From: Halovivax asiaticus JCM 14624
GTDB lineage: Archaea; Halobacteriota; Halobacteria; Halobacteriales; Natrialbaceae
Assembly: GCF_000337515.1 (NCBI RefSeq)
Contig: NZ_AOIQ01000002.1
Location: forward strand, 1-64,000
Direction: 5' to 3'
Length of the DNA stretch: 64,000 bases
Positions 7,965 through 14,956 of this stretch are shown in pieces. Position numbers and translations under genes: made by a program. Position 1 is the first letter of the stretch. Each line of letters opens with the position of its first letter. The notes under the pieces were generated by a model. That model was not told the DNA's origin, made no database searches, and was given only the letters and a program-made list of their open reading frames with translations.

Positions 7965-8864
7965 ATGCACGTAGCCGTACTCGGTGCCGGAACGATGGGT
8001 CAGGGGATCGCGCAGGTCGCCGCCCAGGCCGGCCACGACGTCGTCGTCAGAGACATCGAGTCCGAATACGTCGCCGACGGCATCGACGAGATCGAATCGA
8101 CGCTCGCAGCCGGCGTCGAACGCGAGAAGGTGACGCCCGACGCAAAATCGGCGACGCTCGATCGACTGTCCGGAACGACCGACCTCGAAACGGCGGTCGC
8201 GGACGCCAACGTCGTCGTCGAGGCCGTGCCCGAAGACGTCGAGCTCAAACAGGAGACGTTCACGTCCATCGAGGACGTAACGGGTTCGGAGACGCTCATC
8301 GCGTCGAACACGTCGGCCCTGTCGCTGACCGAAATCGCGAGCGTCCTGGAGCGGCCCGAGCGGGCGATCGGCCTCCACTTTTTCAATCCGGTGCATCTCA
8401 TGGCGCTCGTCGAGATCGTCGTCCCCGAACAAGCGACCGACGAGACGGTCGAAGCGGCCCGCGAGTTCGTCGAGGGAATCGAGAAGACACCGATCACGGT
8501 TCGCGATTCACCCGGCTTCGCGTCCTCGCGACTCGGGGTCGCCCTCGGCGTCGAGGCGATCCGCATGCTCGAGACGGGCGTGGCGTCCCCGCGTGACGTC
8601 GACCAGGCGATGACACTCGGATACAACCACCCGATGGGCCCGATCGAACTCACCGACATTGTCGGGCTCGACGTGCGCCTGGACATCCTCGAACACCTCC
8701 GCGAGGAACTCGGAGAGCGCTTCAAGCCGCCGCAATTGCTCAAGCAGAAGGTGCGCGCCGGGAAGCTCGGTCGCAAGACGGGTGAAGGCTTCTACGTCTG
8801 GGAGGATGGCGAGATCGTGGGTGTGAGTGGCGAGACGACGAATTCCGTGGGGGCTGGCCAATGA
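7965..8864 (+). CDS. 3-hydroxyacyl-CoA dehydrogenase
   Basis: 299 residues, the length of the single-domain 3-hydroxybutyryl/hydroxyacyl-CoA dehydrogenases. It oxidises L-3-hydroxyacyl-CoA with NAD. GAGTMGQG (7-14) is the NAD loop; SNTSAL, the catalytic-His region LHFFNPVH and the C-terminal KTGEGFY are all present. A TATA-like GCTTAATC about 27 bases upstream supports ATG 7965 rather than the in-frame GTG at 7950. The stop overlaps the start of the enoyl-CoA hydratase gene by four bases (ATGA), so the two form an operon for beta-oxidation or a related CoA-ester pathway. Confidence 0.93.
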   Translation: MHVAVLGAGTMGQGIAQVAAQAGHDVVVRDIESEYVADGIDEIESTLAAGVEREKVTPDAKSATLDRLSGTTDLETAVADANVVVEAVPEDVELKQETFTSIEDVTGSETLIASNTSALSLTEIASVLERPERAIGLHFFNPVHLMALVEIVVPEQATDETVEAAREFVEGIEKTPITVRDSPGFASSRLGVALGVEAIRMLETGVASPRDVDQAMTLGYNHPMGPIELTDIVGLDVRLDILEHLREELGERFKPPQLLKQKVRAGKLGRKTGEGFYVWEDGEIVGVSGETTNSVGAGQ

Positions 8865-9712
8865 GTGACGACGAAGCGAGAGGCGACGAGCAACCGACTG
8901 CTGAGGCTGATCTTTCGGATCGATCGTTCGAGACGATCGACGTCGAGATCGGCGAACGCACCGACCACGTCGCGACCGTGACGATCGACCGACCCGACGC
9001 CAGAAACGCCCTGAACGGGACCGTTCGAGAGGAACTGAAGACGGCGCTGCCGGCACTCGAATCGGACGAACAGGTCCGTGTCGTCGTGCTCACGGGATCG
9101 GACGAGGCGAAGGCGTTCGTCGCCGGCGCGGACGTCGGCGAGTTGCGCGAGCGCGACCTCGTCGCACAGCGCGAGAAGAGCAAACGCCCGCGGGTGTACG
9201 AGGTCGTCGACGACCTCGAGTTACCGGTGATCGCCCGCGTGAACGGCCACGCGCTGGGTGGCGGGCTCGAACTGGCGACCGCCTGTGACGTTCGAATCGC
9301 CGACGAACGGGCAAAGCTCGGTCAGCCCGAGATTACGCTAGGGTTGATCCCCGGCGGTGGCGGAACCCAGCGGCTCCCCCGACTCGTCGGGCCCGGTCAG
9401 GCGAAGCGGCTGATCCTCTCAGGCGACGTGATCGGCGCCGACGAGGCGCGCGACATCGGTCTCGTCGAAGAGGTGTGTTCACCCGATACGCTCGACGAGA
9501 CCGTCTACGACCTCGCCGAGTCGATGGCCGCGAACAGTCCACTCGCCCTCGAGTACGCCAAATCGGCACTCCAAGCCAGCGCCCGAATGCCGCTCGACCG
9601 GGGCATCGACTACGAGTCGGAACTGTTCGTCCAACTGTTCGCGACGGCCGACAAGAACGAGGGAATCGACGCTTTCTTCGAGGATCGAGAGCCGGAGTGG
9701 GACGGACGCTGA
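8861..9712 (+). CDS. enoyl-CoA hydratase/isomerase family protein
   Basis: 283 residues of the crotonase fold. AGADVGELR forms the CoA oxyanion-hole region, GHALGGGLELATACD is the second oxyanion-hole segment, and the family's acidic catalytic positions fall in GQPEITLGLIPGGGGTQRL. An acidic extension of about 28 residues precedes the core, common in haloarchaeal proteins. It is translationally coupled to the 3-hydroxyacyl-CoA dehydrogenase gene. The pair could act in fatty-acid oxidation or in the lower phenylacetate pathway, whose upper genes lie at 55-58 kb. Confidence 0.92.
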   Translation: MSDDEARGDEQPTAEADLSDRSFETIDVEIGERTDHVATVTIDRPDARNALNGTVREELKTALPALESDEQVRVVVLTGSDEAKAFVAGADVGELRERDLVAQREKSKRPRVYEVVDDLELPVIARVNGHALGGGLELATACDVRIADERAKLGQPEITLGLIPGGGGTQRLPRLVGPGQAKRLILSGDVIGADEARDIGLVEEVCSPDTLDETVYDLAESMAANSPLALEYAKSALQASARMPLDRGIDYESELFVQLFATADKNEGIDAFFEDREPEWDGR

Positions 9713-9788
9713 CGATACCGACACGTGCCGCATCGTCACGGAGGTGACGGGCGAGTTTTCAGCGAAACGGCGTGAGCGCGCCAGTCGA

Positions 9789-10016
9789 TCAGTCGGCGTT
9801 GACGGCAGGGGAGTTACTCGCGGCTTCGACCGCAGTGTACTCGACGTCGTCCTCCGGGCCGTTGACGAACAGTGCGTGACCGATCAGCGCCGTCGCGACG
9901 AGCGCTCCGCCCGGGATCGCCGTGACCGTCGGGAGGCCGGCGACGATCAGGACCGCTGCGATACCCAGCAGCGAGAGGGGGATAAGGGCCAGAATGATGT
10001 CGTAGTACCGGGCCAT
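9789..10016 (-). CDS. small two-helix membrane protein, unknown function
   Basis: 75 residues. Hydrophobic segments lie at about 7-27 (IILALIPLSLLGIAAVLIV) and 33-51 (AIPGGALVATALIGHALFV), with an acidic C-terminal tail. A strong TATA box (TTTATATAG on the minus strand, about 10043-10051) lies about 30 bases before the ATG. It resembles short haloarchaeal hypothetical membrane proteins, but I cannot name a family. It converges with the enoyl-CoA hydratase gene. Confidence 0.75.
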   Translation of the reverse strand: MARYYDIILALIPLSLLGIAAVLIVAGLPTVTAIPGGALVATALIGHALFVNGPEDDVEYTAVEAASNSPAVNAD

Positions 10017-10042
10017 AGCTATTCAGTACTACGTGAAATGGC

Positions 10043-10051
10043 TATATAAAG
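10043..10051 (-). promoter_or_regulatory. TATA box of the 75-residue membrane protein gene
   Basis: On the minus strand the sequence reads TTTATATAG, close to the archaeal consensus and about 30 bases from the ATG at 10016. Confidence 0.6.
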
Positions 10052-10293
10052 ATTCGCCATATTCTAATCGTACTTGACTCGATCATCACAGTCTGGTTTC
10101 GAATGTGTTTTCGATAAGTTATGAATCAGGTGTGGGTAACGTCGACTCGAAGCGGGCATCGCCGACTCGAATGTGGATCGGCTGGGCCGAGTGCGAGTCG
10201 GCCATAGTACGCACCTCCGCGCCCACGTCAGTAACTGTGGTGGGCTGTCCGATGGATGTGTGAATCAGTGGGGCTGGACGAACGCTCGATGGG

Positions 10294-10725
10294 CTAGAGG
10301 CGATTCTCGTTCGTCCGGATGACGTACTCGTAGCCCAGTCGGGTCGTGAGAATAGCGATGGCGCCAAGCCCGACCATGACGACCATGAACGACCACGGCA
10401 CGTTGCCAGGGGTAACGGGCAGGCCGCGGATCAGGAACGCCACGTTCGTGGCGGCCAGCCAGCAGACCAGGACAGCCCGGGCGTGCGTCGGGAGAGTGAG
10501 TCGCCGTCTGTTCCGATACAGGCCGAGCAGGGCCGCACTGACGAGCCAGCCGAGGACGAACGGTGCGATGGTCTCGACGGTGCGGATCGGCCAATCGAAC
10601 GGCGTGTAGCCGTGTCTCAACTGGCCGGCCATCGTGAGGACGACGATGGCGAGACTGTCCAGCGCGAGCGGCCACTGATCGACGCGTCGAACCGGCGGCC
10701 AGCGATTGTCGGTAGCCACGTTCAT
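10294..10725 (-). CDS. DUF3054 family membrane protein
   Basis: 143 residues with four predicted membrane helices: LALDSLAIVVLTMAGQL, TIAPFVLGWLVSAALLGL, VLVCWLAATNVAFLI and SFMVVMVGLGAIAILTTRL. The spacing, the charged GLYRNRRR loop and the RLGYEYVIR end fit the DUF3054 family of actinobacteria and haloarchaea, whose function is unknown. I chose ATG 10725; the open frame extends far upstream to 11148 but that part is shadow sequence of the divergent zinc-ribbon gene. The two genes share a divergent A/T-rich promoter region. Confidence 0.8.
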   Translation of the reverse strand: MNVATDNRWPPVRRVDQWPLALDSLAIVVLTMAGQLRHGYTPFDWPIRTVETIAPFVLGWLVSAALLGLYRNRRRLTLPTHARAVLVCWLAATNVAFLIRGLPVTPGNVPWSFMVVMVGLGAIAILTTRLGYEYVIRTNENRL

Positions 10726-10797
10726 AGCGGAGATGCTCGCTCGAACGGTATCGATGTCTCGATTTCCGTGAACCGGCCGGGTGTGGGAGAGCAGAAC

Positions 10798-10805
10798 TAA
10801 TATAT
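10798..10805 (+). promoter_or_regulatory. TATA box of the zinc-ribbon/J-domain gene
   Basis: TAATATAT centred about 28 bases before ATG 10829; it implies a leaderless mRNA. The same A/T-rich patch may also help drive the divergent DUF3054 gene. Confidence 0.6.
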
Positions 10806-10828
10806 CACGAACACATATTCCCCCGTAG

Positions 10829-11515
10829 ATGGGTGTCGCCGACAACAGACGGAAAGGCTGTGACGGCTGCGACCGGTCCGTCGTGCTCGGACGGCTGACG
10901 ACCGTCTCGATGCCCGATGGCACACAGGTTGCCTGTTGTCCGACCTGTACGCCACACGCCCGCGCAGCCGCAGCACGGGCGGAACTCGATACGGCGAGCG
11001 CGGCCTGCGAAGGCTGTCGGTCGACCGTCGGGACGGCCGACGTCGAGGACGTCGTCCTGACGGACGGCACCGTCATGTCGCTGTGTTCGGCGTGTCGGGC
11101 GCGCCGACCCAACAGGGGAGACGACGGGACCGGTTCGTCAACCACCACTTCCGACGCTCGGTCGGCTCCCGACGCCGATGTGGCCGCCTCGACCGAAATC
11201 GCTCCCAGTAAGCGACTGTGCGGTCACTGTCGTGAGTGGATCCGTGCGGAACCGTACCGCGTCACGCTCGTCGACGATCGGGTCGAATCCCTCTGTCCGA
11301 CCTGCAAAGAGACTGCGGTCGACGAAGGGATCGTCGTCGACGTGGCGATGCGGCGTGTCGATGCTAGGGAGATCTTGGACGTGGACGAAGACGCCTCGGC
11401 CGAGGAGATCCGCGTGGCGTTTCAGGAACAGGTCAAGCACGCACACCCGGATCGACCGACGGGGACCCGCGAGGCGTTCCGGCTCGTCAGGGACGCCTAC
11501 GAACGGCTGAAGTGA
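10829..11515 (+). CDS. three zinc-ribbon units followed by a C-terminal J domain
   Basis: 228 residues with an unusual architecture. Three CxxC...CxxC units can be read: C11/C14 with C37/C40, C60/C63 with C86/C89, and C131/C134 with C156/C159. Each has about 22 residues between its pairs, as in a treble-clef or zinc-ribbon knuckle. A polar linker (about 95-125) separates units two and three. The C-terminus (about 178-228) is a short J domain with the catalytic HPD at 206-208 followed by helix III (FRLVRDAYERLK). J domains stimulate DnaK/Hsp70 ATPase. The zinc units may bind clients or nucleic acid, but that is inference. It converges with the TIR gene. Confidence 0.85.
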   Translation: MGVADNRRKGCDGCDRSVVLGRLTTVSMPDGTQVACCPTCTPHARAAAARAELDTASAACEGCRSTVGTADVEDVVLTDGTVMSLCSACRARRPNRGDDGTGSSTTTSDARSAPDADVAASTEIAPSKRLCGHCREWIRAEPYRVTLVDDRVESLCPTCKETAVDEGIVVDVAMRRVDAREILDVDEDASAEEIRVAFQEQVKHAHPDRPTGTREAFRLVRDAYERLK

Positions 11516-11560
11516 GTTTTGTCGGTTCACGCCCGCGCGTGGTCGGTGTGTTGATCCCCG

Positions 11561-12175
11561 TCACTTGATCGTCGCTTCTTCCCGTCTGACGAAGCCGATG
11601 GTCGCCGGGTCGAAATAATAACTCGTCTTACAGACGTCACAGCTCGTTTCGAGCAACTGGCCATGTTTGTGGAGTTTCCAGAGTTTCGTCTGACCCTCTT
11701 CGAGTTCGAGCGTTACCGGGTGGCCACAGTCGGCGAGCGTGCAGGGAAACCTGATGTACCAGTTCGGGACCGAGAGTGCGCCGAGAGGTGCGAGTTCGGC
11801 CCGGAGTCGGCTGAGAAGATTGAAGACGGTCTCGGTCAAGTTATCCCGATCGAGCGTGACGCCCTCGACGCCGTCGAGGAACCCACCGCCTAGCGACGGG
11901 TCGGTGTACAGCGCCACCACCGGGATCCCTTTCGCGATGGCGTAGCCGACTTCCTGGTTGATCCATTTGCTGTCCGCGGACGATTCCGTCAGGACCGCGA
12001 CGACGACGTCGCTGTTCGCCAGCCGGCCTTCCAGTCGCTCACGGCTCCGGCCGGACTCGACGGCTTCTAGCGCGAGATGCACCCCGAACGGGAAATTCTT
12101 CACCGTCGAGAACAGCTCCTGAACGACAGACAGATCGGCCGGATCGTGCGAGACGAACACCTGTTCTCCGGACAT
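11561..12175 (-). CDS. TIR-domain protein with C-terminal zinc-binding domain
   Basis: 204 residues. Residues about 5-125 form a TIR fold: VFVSHDPADLSVVQEL is strand A/helix A, ESGRSRERL sits in the BB-loop region, LANSDVVVAVLTESSADS is strand C, and W71-I-N-Q-E75 matches the W-x-x-x-E motif whose Glu is catalytic in TIR NADases. The C-terminal ~65 residues carry C145, C150, H152, C179 and C182, a likely zinc site. ATG 12175 was chosen because an ATTAATA on the minus strand (about 12207-12214) lies about 35 bases upstream; a GTG at 12193 would be too close to it. Possible roles are NAD-cleaving defence, signalling or protein scaffold. No partner such as a ThsA-like protein is adjacent. Confidence 0.85.
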   Translation of the reverse strand: MSGEQVFVSHDPADLSVVQELFSTVKNFPFGVHLALEAVESGRSRERLEGRLANSDVVVAVLTESSADSKWINQEVGYAIAKGIPVVALYTDPSLGGGFLDGVEGVTLDRDNLTETVFNLLSRLRAELAPLGALSVPNWYIRFPCTLADCGHPVTLELEEGQTKLWKLHKHGQLLETSCDVCKTSYYFDPATIGFVRREEATIK

Positions 12176-12376
12176 TATCGGTTGGTCTACCACGGCGGTA
12201 CACCGTTATTAATGTATCTACATCCCGCTGCCAGATACGGAAATGTGGCCCGGATCCGCCACAGATTTAGAAATAAAAGATTAGGGCCGGGCGGTCCGTC
12301 GTCTTTTGTTGGTTCTGTCTATCGATACCTGTGCCTCCCCGTCGATCGATCTGTGATTCCGTGGGTTGACGGCGGC

Positions 12377-13021
12377 CTAGAGCGGATCGACGAGCGACTC
12401 GAGTGCGCCGGCAGGATCGTCGGCCTTCGCGACGCCGCTCGCGAGTAAGACGCCGTCGGCGCCCAACTCCCGGGCGGCAAGGACGTCGTCGCCGGTCGAG
12501 ATGCCGGCGCCACAGAGGACCGACACCGCGGAGTCGACCGCGCCGACGGCGTCGACGGCGTCTTCGACGATGTTCGGGTCCGCCTGACTGACCGGCGTGT
12601 CGCCGCCGATCAGTGCCGGGGGTTCGATCGCGACTGCATCGGGGCCGAGCGCGGCTGCGGCCCCGGCCTGGGCGGGCGTGTTCGCACAGACGATCGTTTC
12701 GAGGCCGGCTCGCTCGCTCGCCGCGAGGCTTTCGTCCAGTTGGTCGAGCCGTTGGCGACGCTCCGAGTGGTTGAGCAGCGTTCCTGCGGCTCCGGCGTCG
12801 GCGACCGACTCGGCGAGGATCGAGCCGGTGTTGCTGCCCGGATCGATCGGGTCGACGTGCTGGGCCCAGGTCTCGATGCCCGTCTCGGCGACTGCGGCCA
12901 GTGCGGTCGGCCCCGGTGCGACGGCGAGTCTGGCATCGGTCGACGGTTCGACGGCCGTTGCCGCCTTGGCGACGGCGACGGGGTCACACGGATACGTCTT
13001 GGTGTTGATGAGGACGAACAT
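12377..13021 (-). CDS. tpiA: triosephosphate isomerase, archaeal short form
   Basis: 214 residues, the archaeal length (bacterial enzymes are ~250). It interconverts dihydroxyacetone phosphate and glyceraldehyde 3-phosphate. NTKTY holds the substrate-binding Asn and Lys, LLNHSE the catalytic His, [10 protein letters not shown] the catalytic Glu with loop 6, and [13 protein letters not shown] the phosphate-binding loops. ATG 13021 gives the usual [11 protein letters not shown] start. It is monocistronic, about 80 bases downstream of the MBF1 gene on the same strand. Confidence 0.95.
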
Positions 13022-13099
13022 ACCCGAACGGCTTCCGGGCGGCAGGAAAAACCTTGCGAGTCCGGGGTCAGCATGGCCAGCCGGCGGTGGCTGACGATC

Positions 13100-13642
13100 T
13101 CAGTCCTTTCGTTTCACGACGTCTCCGAGGGTGTAACTTCCCGAGGACGAGCCGCCACTCCACTCGGTATCGTCGCTCCCTCCGGTGCTCGCGGAGAGCG
13201 ACAGGTCGAAGAATCGTTCGAGTTCCGACTGGACCTCGTCACTCGGCAACGTCTCGCCGCGTTCGAGTTTGCGGATGAGGCTCGCCTTCTCGTTGAGTTC
13301 GTTCGCCAGATCAGACTGGCTCAGCCCGGCTTCCTCGCGGGCCTGGCGAATGGTGTCGTCGTAATCCGGCGCGATTTCGTCCATCTCGTCGAACATATCC
13401 GACGATCGGCCGCCACCGCCGCCGCTGCTCCCACCACTGCTCGACCGACTCGTCGACCCACTCCCACTGCTCGACCCCGAACTGTCGGTGGAGTACTTCG
13501 TCGACGTGCTCGAGGTGGAGCCTGGCGTTTTGACCTCCGTCCCGAAGTCGGTACAGTTCGAGCAGACGTCCAGCTTCGCGCCCTCGACTTTGATCGTCTT
13601 CGGGGCCTGCGTCTCGGCGCCACACATCTCACACTGAACCAT
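13100..13642 (-). CDS. multiprotein bridging factor 1 (aMBF1) homologue
   Basis: 180 residues. An N-terminal zinc ribbon (C4, C7, C27, C30), a Ser/Gly-rich low-complexity linker (about 41-82), and a cro/C1-type HTH (about 95-150, with LSQSDLANELNEKASLIRKLERGETLPS) give the archaeal MBF1 architecture. It is a transcription co-factor or ribosome-associated protein in archaea. ATG 13642 directly precedes the VQCEMCG motif; the longer frame adds only nine poor residues. The C-terminal tail is polar. Confidence 0.92.
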   Translation of the reverse strand: MVQCEMCGAETQAPKTIKVEGAKLDVCSNCTDFGTEVKTPGSTSSTSTKYSTDSSGSSSGSGSTSRSSSGGSSGGGGGRSSDMFDEMDEIAPDYDDTIRQAREEAGLSQSDLANELNEKASLIRKLERGETLPSDEVQSELERFFDLSLSASTGGSDDTEWSGGSSSGSYTLGDVVKRKD

Positions 13643-13757
13643 GGCAGTGGGTATGAGACGCCGAGTCATAAAGGATGCGCCCCGGTGGCCGTCTGACGAA
13701 TCGATGCGTCCCCCTGGGTCGATTCAGTGTCTCTCGGGTGAACGACAGTCGCCTGGA

Positions 13758-14369
13758 TTACTTGAGCGCGAGCCAGGCGTAGTAGAACCGCTGGATCGCC
13801 GTCAGGTGACCGACGACGGCGAGGAACGCGAGCAGCCACCAGACCAGTCCGTGGCCGCCGTACGCACCCGACAGGGGCACGACCAGGAAGCCGACCAGTC
13901 CGATCAGTGCGAGCCGATCGGCACGGCCGACGAGGCCCCCGTAGACGCGGTCCAGCCCGACTGCCTGCGCTTGCGTACCGAGATAGGAGGTGAGAAGAAC
14001 GCCGGTGACGGCGGCGATTCCCAGCGGGTAGGCCTCGATCCCGGCGGCGAGTCCGACGATGATGACGACGTCGGCGTAGCGATCGAGCACGTGGTCGAGC
14101 ATGTCGCCCGCGCGCGACGCTACCGATTGTTTTCTGGCGAGTGCGCCGTCGACGACGTCGAGCCAGCCGTTCGCCAGCACGAGCAGCGAGGCGACGGCGT
14201 ACCACCACTGGGCCGATGCCCCGCCGAGGTAGAAGGCACCGGCGGCGCCGAGGGCCGTGACGAAGGCGACCACGCTTACGCCGTTGGGCGTCATTCCGAG
14301 TCGATCGAACCCGTTCACGAACGGTCTGAGGACCCCCGAGATGTAGGGGCGGAATTGATCGAGCGTCAT
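13758..14369 (-). CDS. CDP-alcohol phosphatidyltransferase, probable archaetidylinositol phosphate synthase
   Basis: 203 residues, about six membrane helices. The full motif D71-x2-D74-G-x2-A78-R79-x8-G88-x3-D92-x3-D96 is present, the metal and CDP-binding site of the family. By length and sequence it fits archaetidylinositol phosphate synthases, which join CDP-archaeol to inositol phosphate; other head groups are possible. It is the last gene of a three-gene operon: its ATG overlaps the stop of the AK6 gene by four bases (ATGA). Confidence 0.85.
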   Translation of the reverse strand: MTLDQFRPYISGVLRPFVNGFDRLGMTPNGVSVVAFVTALGAAGAFYLGGASAQWWYAVASLLVLANGWLDVVDGALARKQSVASRAGDMLDHVLDRYADVVIIVGLAAGIEAYPLGIAAVTGVLLTSYLGTQAQAVGLDRVYGGLVGRADRLALIGLVGFLVVPLSGAYGGHGLVWWLLAFLAVVGHLTAIQRFYYAWLALK

Positions 14370-14956
14370 TGCAGATACCCCACGAAGTCGACGGTCCCGG
14401 CACTCGGTTCGCGTTCGCCCGTCAGGACATCGACGATGCGGTCGGCCACGTCGTCGGGAGTGCGTTCCGTCGTGTCGATCTCGTAGACGGATTCCATGCC
14501 GTGGGATTCGACCGCCTCGGCGAGGATCACGTCGAGCGCCTCGCTCTCCGCGTTTTCGTGTGCTTTCTCGGCAACTTCGCCTCTCTCGCGCAGCCGACGG
14601 GCCAACTCGTTCGGTTCACACCGGAGGACGACGACGCGGTCGGCCGGCAGGTGATGTGCGAGGTGGGAGTCGACCACGACCGGCGCGCGGTCGTCGACGA
14701 CCGATTCGAGGGCGTCCATATCGGCGATGACGCTGTCCCGATCCTCGTCGACGTCCGTGTACAGCGACTCGGACTCGATGAGGTCGTTCAGGTGACAGAT
14801 ATCGTCCTCGGTGAGTTCGTCGACCGTTGCCTCCCCATCGACTATCGCTGCGGCTGTCGACGTGCCGGCTTCCACGATGGCGTCGAACCGGTCGGCGAGG
14901 GCGGTCGTCGCCGTCGTCTTGCCCGTCCCCGGCGTGCCGGTCACGGCGACTCTCAC
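14366..14956 (-). CDS. adenylate kinase family protein, AK6/Fap7 type
   Basis: 196 residues. The P-loop GTPGTGKTT lies at 7-15. DSHLAHHLPADRVVVLRC and RLRERGEVAEKAHENAESEALDVILAEA are hallmarks of AK6/Fap7, which in eukaryotes and archaea assists late 18S/16S rRNA maturation and has nucleoside monophosphate kinase activity. The start is GTG 14956, which overlaps the hisC stop by four bases (GTGA), so it is translated by coupling. The longer open frame upstream is the shadow of hisC. Its stop overlaps the lipid-synthase start. Confidence 0.9.
   Translation of the reverse strand: MRVAVTGTPGTGKTTATTALADRFDAIVEAGTSTAAAIVDGEATVDELTEDDICHLNDLIESESLYTDVDEDRDSVIADMDALESVVDDRAPVVVDSHLAHHLPADRVVVLRCEPNELARRLRERGEVAEKAHENAESEALDVILAEAVESHGMESVYEIDTTERTPDDVADRIVDVLTGEREPSAGTVDFVGYLQ

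What the first reader, a model, noticed from the sequence alone, without database searches (positions are those of the whole stretch)
11561..12175. Stand-alone TIR protein with a Cys/His C-terminal domain
TIR fold with the W-x-x-x-E motif (W71, E75) that carries the catalytic Glu of NAD-cleaving TIR enzymes, fused to a domain with C145, C150, H152, C179 and C182. Known TIR defence proteins such as ThsB need partners; none is adjacent here. The zinc domain could be a sensor or target-binding module, making this a candidate single-protein defence or signalling factor.
Basis: partly seen in the sequence, partly recalled or inferred. Interest (0 to 1): 0.55.

Follow-up and report, generated by a model that had tools for sequence, protein, structure and literature searches.

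The report
Core-genome TIR enzyme with zinc tail
A salt-loving archaeon carries a probable NAD-cleaving immune-type (TIR) enzyme with an unusual four-cysteine tail, and it behaves not as a mobile defence gene but as a fixed, inherited gene of nearly its whole family, which makes it a good test of whether TIR enzymes can have permanent cellular jobs.

Summary
The ORF is real: window 11561-12175 (-), 204 aa, a TIR domain (Pfam TIR_2 39.9 bits, cut-off 28) plus a ~70-aa C-terminal region with four cysteines. In 89 relatives (79 distinct) W71 and E75 of the WxxxE motif are invariant; C145, C150, C179 and C182 are kept in all but one frameshifted copy; H152 is not conserved. The gene is not a patchy defence gene. 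It is present once in 87 of 101 sampled genomes of its family (Natrialbaceae) and 7 of 290 other sampled haloarchaea, usually in one slot between tpiA and a convergent zinc-finger J-domain gene, with a gene tree about as congruent with neighbouring housekeeping genes as those are with each other and its own TATA-like box. No defence gene is nearby; no Thoeris ThsA domain was found in the genome. The tail occurs only fused to this TIR and has no recognised relative. Best reading: an inherited, self-contained TIR NAD+ glycohydrolase/cyclase gated by a four-Cys, probably zinc-binding, tail. Catalysis, zinc binding and trigger are inferred. New variant of a known kind; moderate interest.

The parts
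11561..12175 (-). TIR-zinc protein gene, 204 aa
   Evidence: orthologues in 94 of 391 haloarchaeal genomes
11792..12175 (-). TIR domain, residues 1-128
   Evidence: Pfam TIR_2; TIR chains lead Foldseek and VIA-align, though the whole-protein model is low confidence (pLDDT 60, pTM 0.42)
11963..11965 (-). W71 of the WxxxE motif
   Evidence: 79 of 79 distinct relatives; aligns to the Trp of BtTir and TcpB in the printed alignments
11951..11953 (-). E75, predicted catalytic glutamate
   Evidence: 79 of 79 distinct relatives; aligns to the Glu of the BtTir and TcpB WxxxE
11564..11791 (-). C-terminal four-Cys domain, residues 129-204; predicted beta-beta-alpha-beta-beta-beta with the two Cys pairs in hairpin loops
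   Evidence: pLDDT 78, pTM 0.65; no Pfam match
11726..11743 (-). first Cys pair, C145-x4-C150
   Evidence: 78 of 79 distinct relatives
11630..11641 (-). second Cys pair, C179-x2-C182
   Evidence: 78 of 79 distinct relatives
12207..12213 (-). TATA-like box ATTAATA, 32-38 bases upstream of the ATG
   Evidence: TTWWWW pattern in the upstream band in 40 of 89 relatives versus 0 of 445 control windows
10829..11515 (+). convergent neighbour: CxxC-rich protein with a C-terminal J domain (HPD present); possible accessory of the TIR protein
   Evidence: Pfam DnaJ 1.1e-8; next gene in 43 of 59 loci; in family f1 present in 72 of 87 TIR+ and 2 of 14 TIR- genomes

Best explanation
This is a self-contained TIR enzyme that cleaves NAD+ (products likely nicotinamide plus ADP-ribose and/or a cyclic ADP-ribose isomer), made by a permanent chromosomal gene of Natrialbaceae and transcribed from its own promoter. 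The C-terminal four-Cys domain probably binds one zinc ion and works as the built-in sensor or clustering module: at rest the TIR domains are apart or paired unproductively; a trigger (viral component, damaged protein or stress signal) bound by the tail brings TIRs together, the shared active site containing E75 forms, and NAD+ is cut, either to stop growth of an infected or damaged cell or to make a signal. Shown: domain make-up, invariant W71/E75 and four Cys, core inheritance, a conserved TATA-like box, no Thoeris partner found. Inferred: NADase activity, zinc, clustering, trigger and physiological role.
For: TIR_2 and ThsB_TIR above cut-off. W71/E75 invariant and aligned to the WxxxE of BtTir and TcpB; this Glu is required in most bacterial TIR NADases, and the Trp is reported as strongly conserved in cADPR makers (PMC11374754, passages). 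Fold search gives TIR domains of SPARTA, SARM1 and plant TIRs (Foldseek 4c6t E 1.3e-5; VIA-align 8ifl_A Z 13.6, rmsd 3.1, 123 aligned). Core inheritance. Tail found only fused to this TIR. STALD and SIR2_2 searches empty in the own genome. SpbK as precedent for sensor domain plus TIR in one protein (PMC12847820).
Against: No activity data. The whole-protein model is poor (pLDDT 60.1), and nucleoside deoxyribosyltransferase and DNPH1 chains tie with TIRs in the fold comparison (Z 12-13); the best single PDB sequence hit is a nucleoside 2-deoxyribosyltransferase (7m5h). Core inheritance is unusual for abortive-infection TIRs. dN/dS is about twice that of tpiA (0.30 against 0.12), so constraint is real but weaker than on the housekeeping neighbours. 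Fourteen of 101 family genomes lack the gene, so it is dispensable.
Confidence: 0.55

Rival explanations
1. It is an N-glycosidase of the wider nucleoside deoxyribosyltransferase/DNPH1/TIR superfamily that acts on nucleotides other than NAD+ (nucleotide salvage or sanitation), which would explain its housekeeping-like inheritance.
For: Nuc_deoxyrib_tr is the third Pfam match (26.8 bits); best PDB sequence hit is 7m5h, a nucleoside 2-deoxyribosyltransferase; DNPH1 and deoxyribosyltransferase chains tie with TIRs at Z 12-13; core gene next to tpiA.
Against: TIR_2 scores higher and passes its cut-off while Nuc_deoxyrib_tr (28.8) is missed; the invariant Trp four residues before the Glu is the TIR WxxxE signature and has no Trp counterpart in the 7m5h alignment.
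Confidence: 0.15
2. It is an intact antiviral (abortive infection) TIR that happens to have been fixed in the family, with the tail recognising a conserved haloviral protein, as SpbK recognises a portal. This is the defence version of the best explanation, listed apart because it makes its own prediction.
For: Closest curated profiles are defence TIRs (ThcB4 37.3 bits, retron-TIR 25.6 bits, far under cut-off; ThsB models in PADLOC); TIR NADases in prokaryotes are often immune (PMC7282519 passages).
Against: No defence neighbour among 13 neighbouring window proteins tested (10 with none; two with none, and aMBF1 with helix-turn-helix-level hits only); single copy, mostly fixed slot, housekeeping-like tree; no hit in 50,697 phage records and none confirmed in viral contigs.
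Confidence: 0.3
3. The TIR protein and the convergent zinc-finger J-domain protein form one functional module, in which the co-chaperone recruits DnaK to fold, disassemble or switch off the TIR assembly.
For: The same families carry both; in f1, 72 of 87 TIR+ genomes but 2 of 14 TIR- genomes have the J protein; both are kept when 145-160 kb apart (G180, G191, G196, G295) or on different contigs (G356), and in f10 at about 193 kb and 1.4 Mb (G135, G260); six of eight TIR- slots read lack both genes.
Against: 15 of 87 TIR+ genomes in f1 lack the J protein at E 1e-10, so it is not required; convergent, not co-transcribed; co-loss can be one deletion; genomes are related, so the Fisher p of 9e-7 overstates the evidence; the f10 J hits cover only about residues 89-228.
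Confidence: 0.2
4. A non-enzymatic TIR scaffold, with E75 kept for structure.
For: Some TIRs are scaffolds (established knowledge); no activity data here.
Against: W71 and E75 are both invariant in 79 distinct sequences while nearby positions 65, 68 and 70 vary freely.
Confidence: 0.1

Closest known systems
Bacterial TIR NADases AbTir, BtTir and TcpB/BtpA
   Same: TIR domain with aligned SH..D start and WxxxE motif
   Different: This one has a C-terminal four-Cys domain, is archaeal and is a core gene of its family
SpbK (Bacillus subtilis single-protein TIR defence)
   Same: One protein carrying TIR plus a second domain; no adjacent effector known
   Different: SpbK's sensor is N-terminal and recognises a phage portal (PMC12847820); here the extra domain is C-terminal and its target is unknown; inheritance is core
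Thoeris ThsB / ThcB4
   Same: Best curated TIR profiles are of this kind
   Different: Scores far below the ThcB4 cut-off (37.3 of 220 bits); no STALD or SIR2_2 match in the genome
Nucleoside 2-deoxyribosyltransferase / DNPH1
   Same: Similar fold and aligned Glu
   Different: Profile cut-off not reached; the Trp of WxxxE is TIR-like

Membership tests
TIR domain (Pfam TIR_2) | Score above the curated cut-off | tested here: met
   39.9 bits against 28; over cut-off again in the genome search
TIR domain (Pfam TIR_2) | TIR fold | tested here: met
   TIR chains lead Foldseek (E 1.3e-5) and VIA-align (Z 13.6), with the caveat of a low-confidence model and ties with DNPH1/deoxyribosyltransferase
[quoted passage not shown]
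   W71 and E75 in 89 of 89 relatives; aligned to BtTir and TcpB
TIR NADase | NAD+ cleavage dependent on that Glu | not testable with these tools
   needs protein
Thoeris | ThsA-type NAD effector encoded with the TIR gene | tested here: not met
   no such neighbour; PF18185 and PF13289 each 0 matches in the own genome at E 0.1. Macro-domain (type II) effectors were not searched
Thoeris type III ThcB4 (NF058526) | Score above the curated cut-off | tested here: not met
   37.3 bits against 220; match lies within the TIR part; 37 of 37 members match weakly
Nucleoside 2-deoxyribosyltransferase (PF05014) | Score above the curated cut-off | tested here: not met
   26.8 bits against 28.8
Nucleoside 2-deoxyribosyltransferase / DNPH1 fold | Fold match distinct from TIR | tested here: inconclusive
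   chains tie with TIRs at Z 12-13
Zinc-ribbon domain | Four conserved Cys in two knuckles at hairpin loops | tested here: met
   C145, C150, C179, C182 in 78 of 79 distinct sequences; pairs fall between strands in the model
Zinc-ribbon domain | Match to a known zinc-ribbon family or structure | tested here: inconclusive
   no Pfam match; Foldseek best E 0.47, VIA-align best Z 3.3; weak NCBIfam MJ0042 12 bits, below the 20.9 cut-off
Zinc-ribbon domain | Metal bound | not testable with these tools
   needs protein
SpbK-like single-protein defence | TIR plus own second (sensor) domain in one protein | tested here: inconclusive
   two-domain architecture is met, with the extra domain at the C-terminus; that it senses anything is inferred
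SpbK-like single-protein defence | Protection against phage through NAD+ loss | not testable with these tools
   needs infection assay
Defence-island gene | Patchy distribution and defence neighbours | tested here: not met
   87 of 101 family genomes, one copy each; conserved slot; 10 of 10 further neighbours with no PADLOC match at 1e-5

The most novel reading that the evidence does not exclude
A TIR NADase has been permanently domesticated as a core gene of an archaeal family, gated by a lineage-specific zinc tail and loosely coupled to a zinc-finger J-domain co-chaperone, forming an ancient two-gene module that links protein-quality or infection sensing to NAD+ signalling; the same TIR fold used in mobile immunity serves here as resident cell physiology.
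Probability: 0.22. Interest if true: 0.75.

Novelty: new variant of a known kind. Interest (0 to 1): 0.47.

Why it matters
Prokaryotic TIR enzymes are studied mainly as mobile, often partner-dependent defence genes. A single-copy TIR with an invariant catalytic motif, inherited like a housekeeping gene across an archaeal family and with its own TATA-like box, makes it testable whether TIR NADases have permanent roles outside or before defence, and what an archaeal TIR senses. No paper describing this protein was seen in the searches made here, which cover only an open-licence library.

Tried and rejected
H152 as a metal ligand: rejected, 46 of 79 distinct sequences.

The small gene just upstream of the TIR in most species (C6) as the missing partner: rejected. 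It is immediately upstream in 41 of 59 loci, but relatives occur in 273 of 391 haloarchaeal genomes, far beyond the TIR, it stays beside tpiA in all 8 TIR-negative slots read, and it is not found in the window's genome at E 1e-5.

Thoeris: STALD and SIR2_2 searches of the genome empty. The STALD control search reached the cut-off in 0 of 14 control genomes, so that null is weaker than the SIR2_2 one (2 of 14 over cut-off).

Mobile or viral origin: no phage record, no confirmed viral contig; in plasmids one orthologue on a 987-kb Natrinema replicon and one distant TIR-only match.

Relation of the tail to the zinc fingers of the neighbouring J protein: no significant similarity (hhalign probability 1%). 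Fold search with the tail alone gave nothing usable; an unlisted family is not excluded by that. Rfam: nothing at gathering thresholds in 9700-14500.

Full report
What is there. The minus-strand ORF 11561-12175 encodes 204 aa. Residues 6-92 match Pfam TIR_2 (6.9e-10, 39.9 bits, cut-off 28) and residues 7-92 ThsB_TIR (2.5e-7). It is the only TIR_2 match in the 3.24-Mb genome at E 0.01. The last ~72 residues match no Pfam family.

Relatives. A translated search of 391 haloarchaeal genomes finds one orthologue in each of 94 (47-100% identity): 87 of 101 genomes of the window's own family f1, 5 genomes of one genus in f7 and 2 of one genus in f10 (the 14 f1 genomes without a match are all listed there). 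f1 is Natrialbaceae: the named loci are of that family by their titles or by my recollection of their genera, and nine of them are identical (195 aa) to loci of f1 genomes. A profile of the tail alone finds the same 94 genomes plus one marginal hit (G300, E 0.0074, part of a 740-aa frame), so in this sample of the class the tail exists only as part of this protein.

Conservation. Of 89 relatives aligned (79 distinct after removing identical ones), W71 and E75 are present in all; C145, C150, C179 and C182 in all but L040, which is frameshifted; H152 in 52 of 89. Also invariant or nearly so: H10, G77, W139, F143, Q162, L165, Y186, F188. In the PDB comparison W71 and E75 fall on the Trp and Glu of the printed BtTir and TcpB matches; AbTir is listed as a match over the same range. 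In the literature that Glu is needed for most bacterial TIR NADases, and the Trp is strongly conserved in those that make cADPR isomers, although TcpC keeps the Trp and makes linear ADPR (PMC11374754, passages).

Structure. The full-length model is weak (pLDDT 60.1, pTM 0.42, 37 sequences). Even so its first ~135 residues match TIR domains best: Foldseek 4c6t E 1.3e-5; VIA-align SPARTA TIR-APAZ 8ifl_A Z 13.6, rmsd 3.1, 123 aligned. Deoxyribosyltransferase 7o62_B (Z 12.9, rmsd 2.6, 118 aligned) and DNPH1 8rps_B (Z 12.6, rmsd 2.8, 116 aligned) are tied with TIRs, so the fold alone does not settle the substrate. The tail alone models better (pLDDT 77.7, pTM 0.65): strands 12-17 and 26-31, a short helix, strands 48-51, 58-62 and 67-72 of the fragment, with the two Cys pairs in the loops of the first and second hairpins, as in zinc ribbons. 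No solved structure matches usefully (Foldseek best E 0.47, VIA-align best Z 3.3).

Neighbourhood. Of 59 loci with at least 8 kb held (50 distinct), the TIR lies within three genes downstream of tpiA in 53, and the convergent zinc-finger J-domain gene follows in 43; the usual wider order is hisC, adenylate kinase, CDP-alcohol transferase, aMBF1, tpiA, small gene C6, TIR, J protein, DUF3054. Of the six others, two have tpiA one gene further off, two are rearranged or lack it in the stretch held, and two are f10, where the TIR sits elsewhere, upstream of genes I read as succinyl-CoA synthetase. None of 10 window neighbours has a PADLOC match at 1e-5; of three more, two have none and aMBF1 has helix-turn-helix-level matches only. 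In eight slots read from TIR-negative genomes (8 of the 14), tpiA and C6 stay in place; six lack both TIR and J protein, two keep the J protein.

Inheritance and selection. Across 47 loci the TIR tree shares 22 of 44 splits with the tree of five housekeeping neighbours (RF 0.50); hisC, tpiA, aMBF1 and adenylate kinase against the rest give 0.50-0.57. Against a fully clock-like housekeeping pattern: the patristic correlation is lower (0.71 against 0.82-0.87), and 1 of 15 strongly supported splits conflicts. Mean pairwise identity is below that of the housekeeping genes (0.64 against 0.83 for tpiA) and above C6, DUF3054 and the J protein. Median dN/dS is 0.30 for the TIR against 0.12 for tpiA, 0.36 for the J protein and 0.45 for DUF3054 (pairs with TIR dS under 1, simple counting method; each gene on its own set of pairs). 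So it is inherited vertically under clear but not extreme purifying selection.

Expression. A TATA-like box (ATTAATA at 12207-12213 in the window) lies 32-38 bases before the ATG. A TTWWWW pattern occurs in that band in 40 of 89 relatives against 0 of 445 control windows taken further upstream, largely in coding sequence, so the gene probably has its own promoter.

Partner question. In f1 the J protein is present in 72 of 87 TIR+ and 2 of 14 TIR- genomes (Fisher p 9e-7, not corrected for relatedness). Five g18 genomes keep both though the genes are not adjacent (about 145-160 kb apart in four, different contigs in the fifth), as do both f10 genomes. Against need: 15 TIR+ genomes lack it. C6 is a general haloarchaeal gene (273 of 391 genomes) and not a specific partner. 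Thoeris effectors were not found; macro-domain effectors were not searched.

Mechanism. By analogy with SpbK, where a sensor domain docks on a phage portal and clusters TIR domains into active NADase (PMC12847820, abstract and passages), I propose that the tail senses or docks and the TIR cuts NAD+ when clustered. Archaeal TIR NADase activity has a precedent in TcpO (PMC7282519 passages). Which trigger, and whether the purpose is defence or resident stress signalling, is open; the inheritance pattern argues for a permanent cellular role at least as much as for antiviral defence.

Novelty. The TIR is annotated as such in public records (one search names one 'TIR domain-containing protein'), so the domain is not new. 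What is new to me is the core status in a family together with the lineage-specific four-Cys tail. The paper searches (listings only except where passages are cited) showed no description of it.

Noticed in passing
window 10829-11515 (+): Unusual J-domain protein: CxxC-rich N-terminal region and a J domain at the C-terminus (HPD present), limited among 391 sampled haloarchaea to the families that carry the TIR gene, apart from seven weaker hits that are mostly J-domain only.
   Followed up: partly
L008:7490-7927: C6, a 105-145 aa protein family with no Pfam match, usually beside tpiA in the loci read, found in 273 of 391 haloarchaeal genomes; function unknown.
   Followed up: partly
L079 (reading, 8027-8482), also L081, L083, L084: An HNH-endonuclease-like gene (PF01844 2e-6 for the L079 copy) with zinc-finger-like Cys pairs sits between tpiA and the TIR gene in genera g19 and g22.
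   Followed up: partly
G127 contig C9:46918-47205 and G029 contig C1:230626-230976: Two other, stronger TIR_2 proteins in 22 genomes searched, patchy as expected of accessory TIRs and unlike the core TIR.
   Followed up: no
L040:8001-8599: The only broken orthologue seen among 89: a frameshift near residue 115 in Haloterrigena sp. H1; sequencing error not excluded.
   Followed up: no
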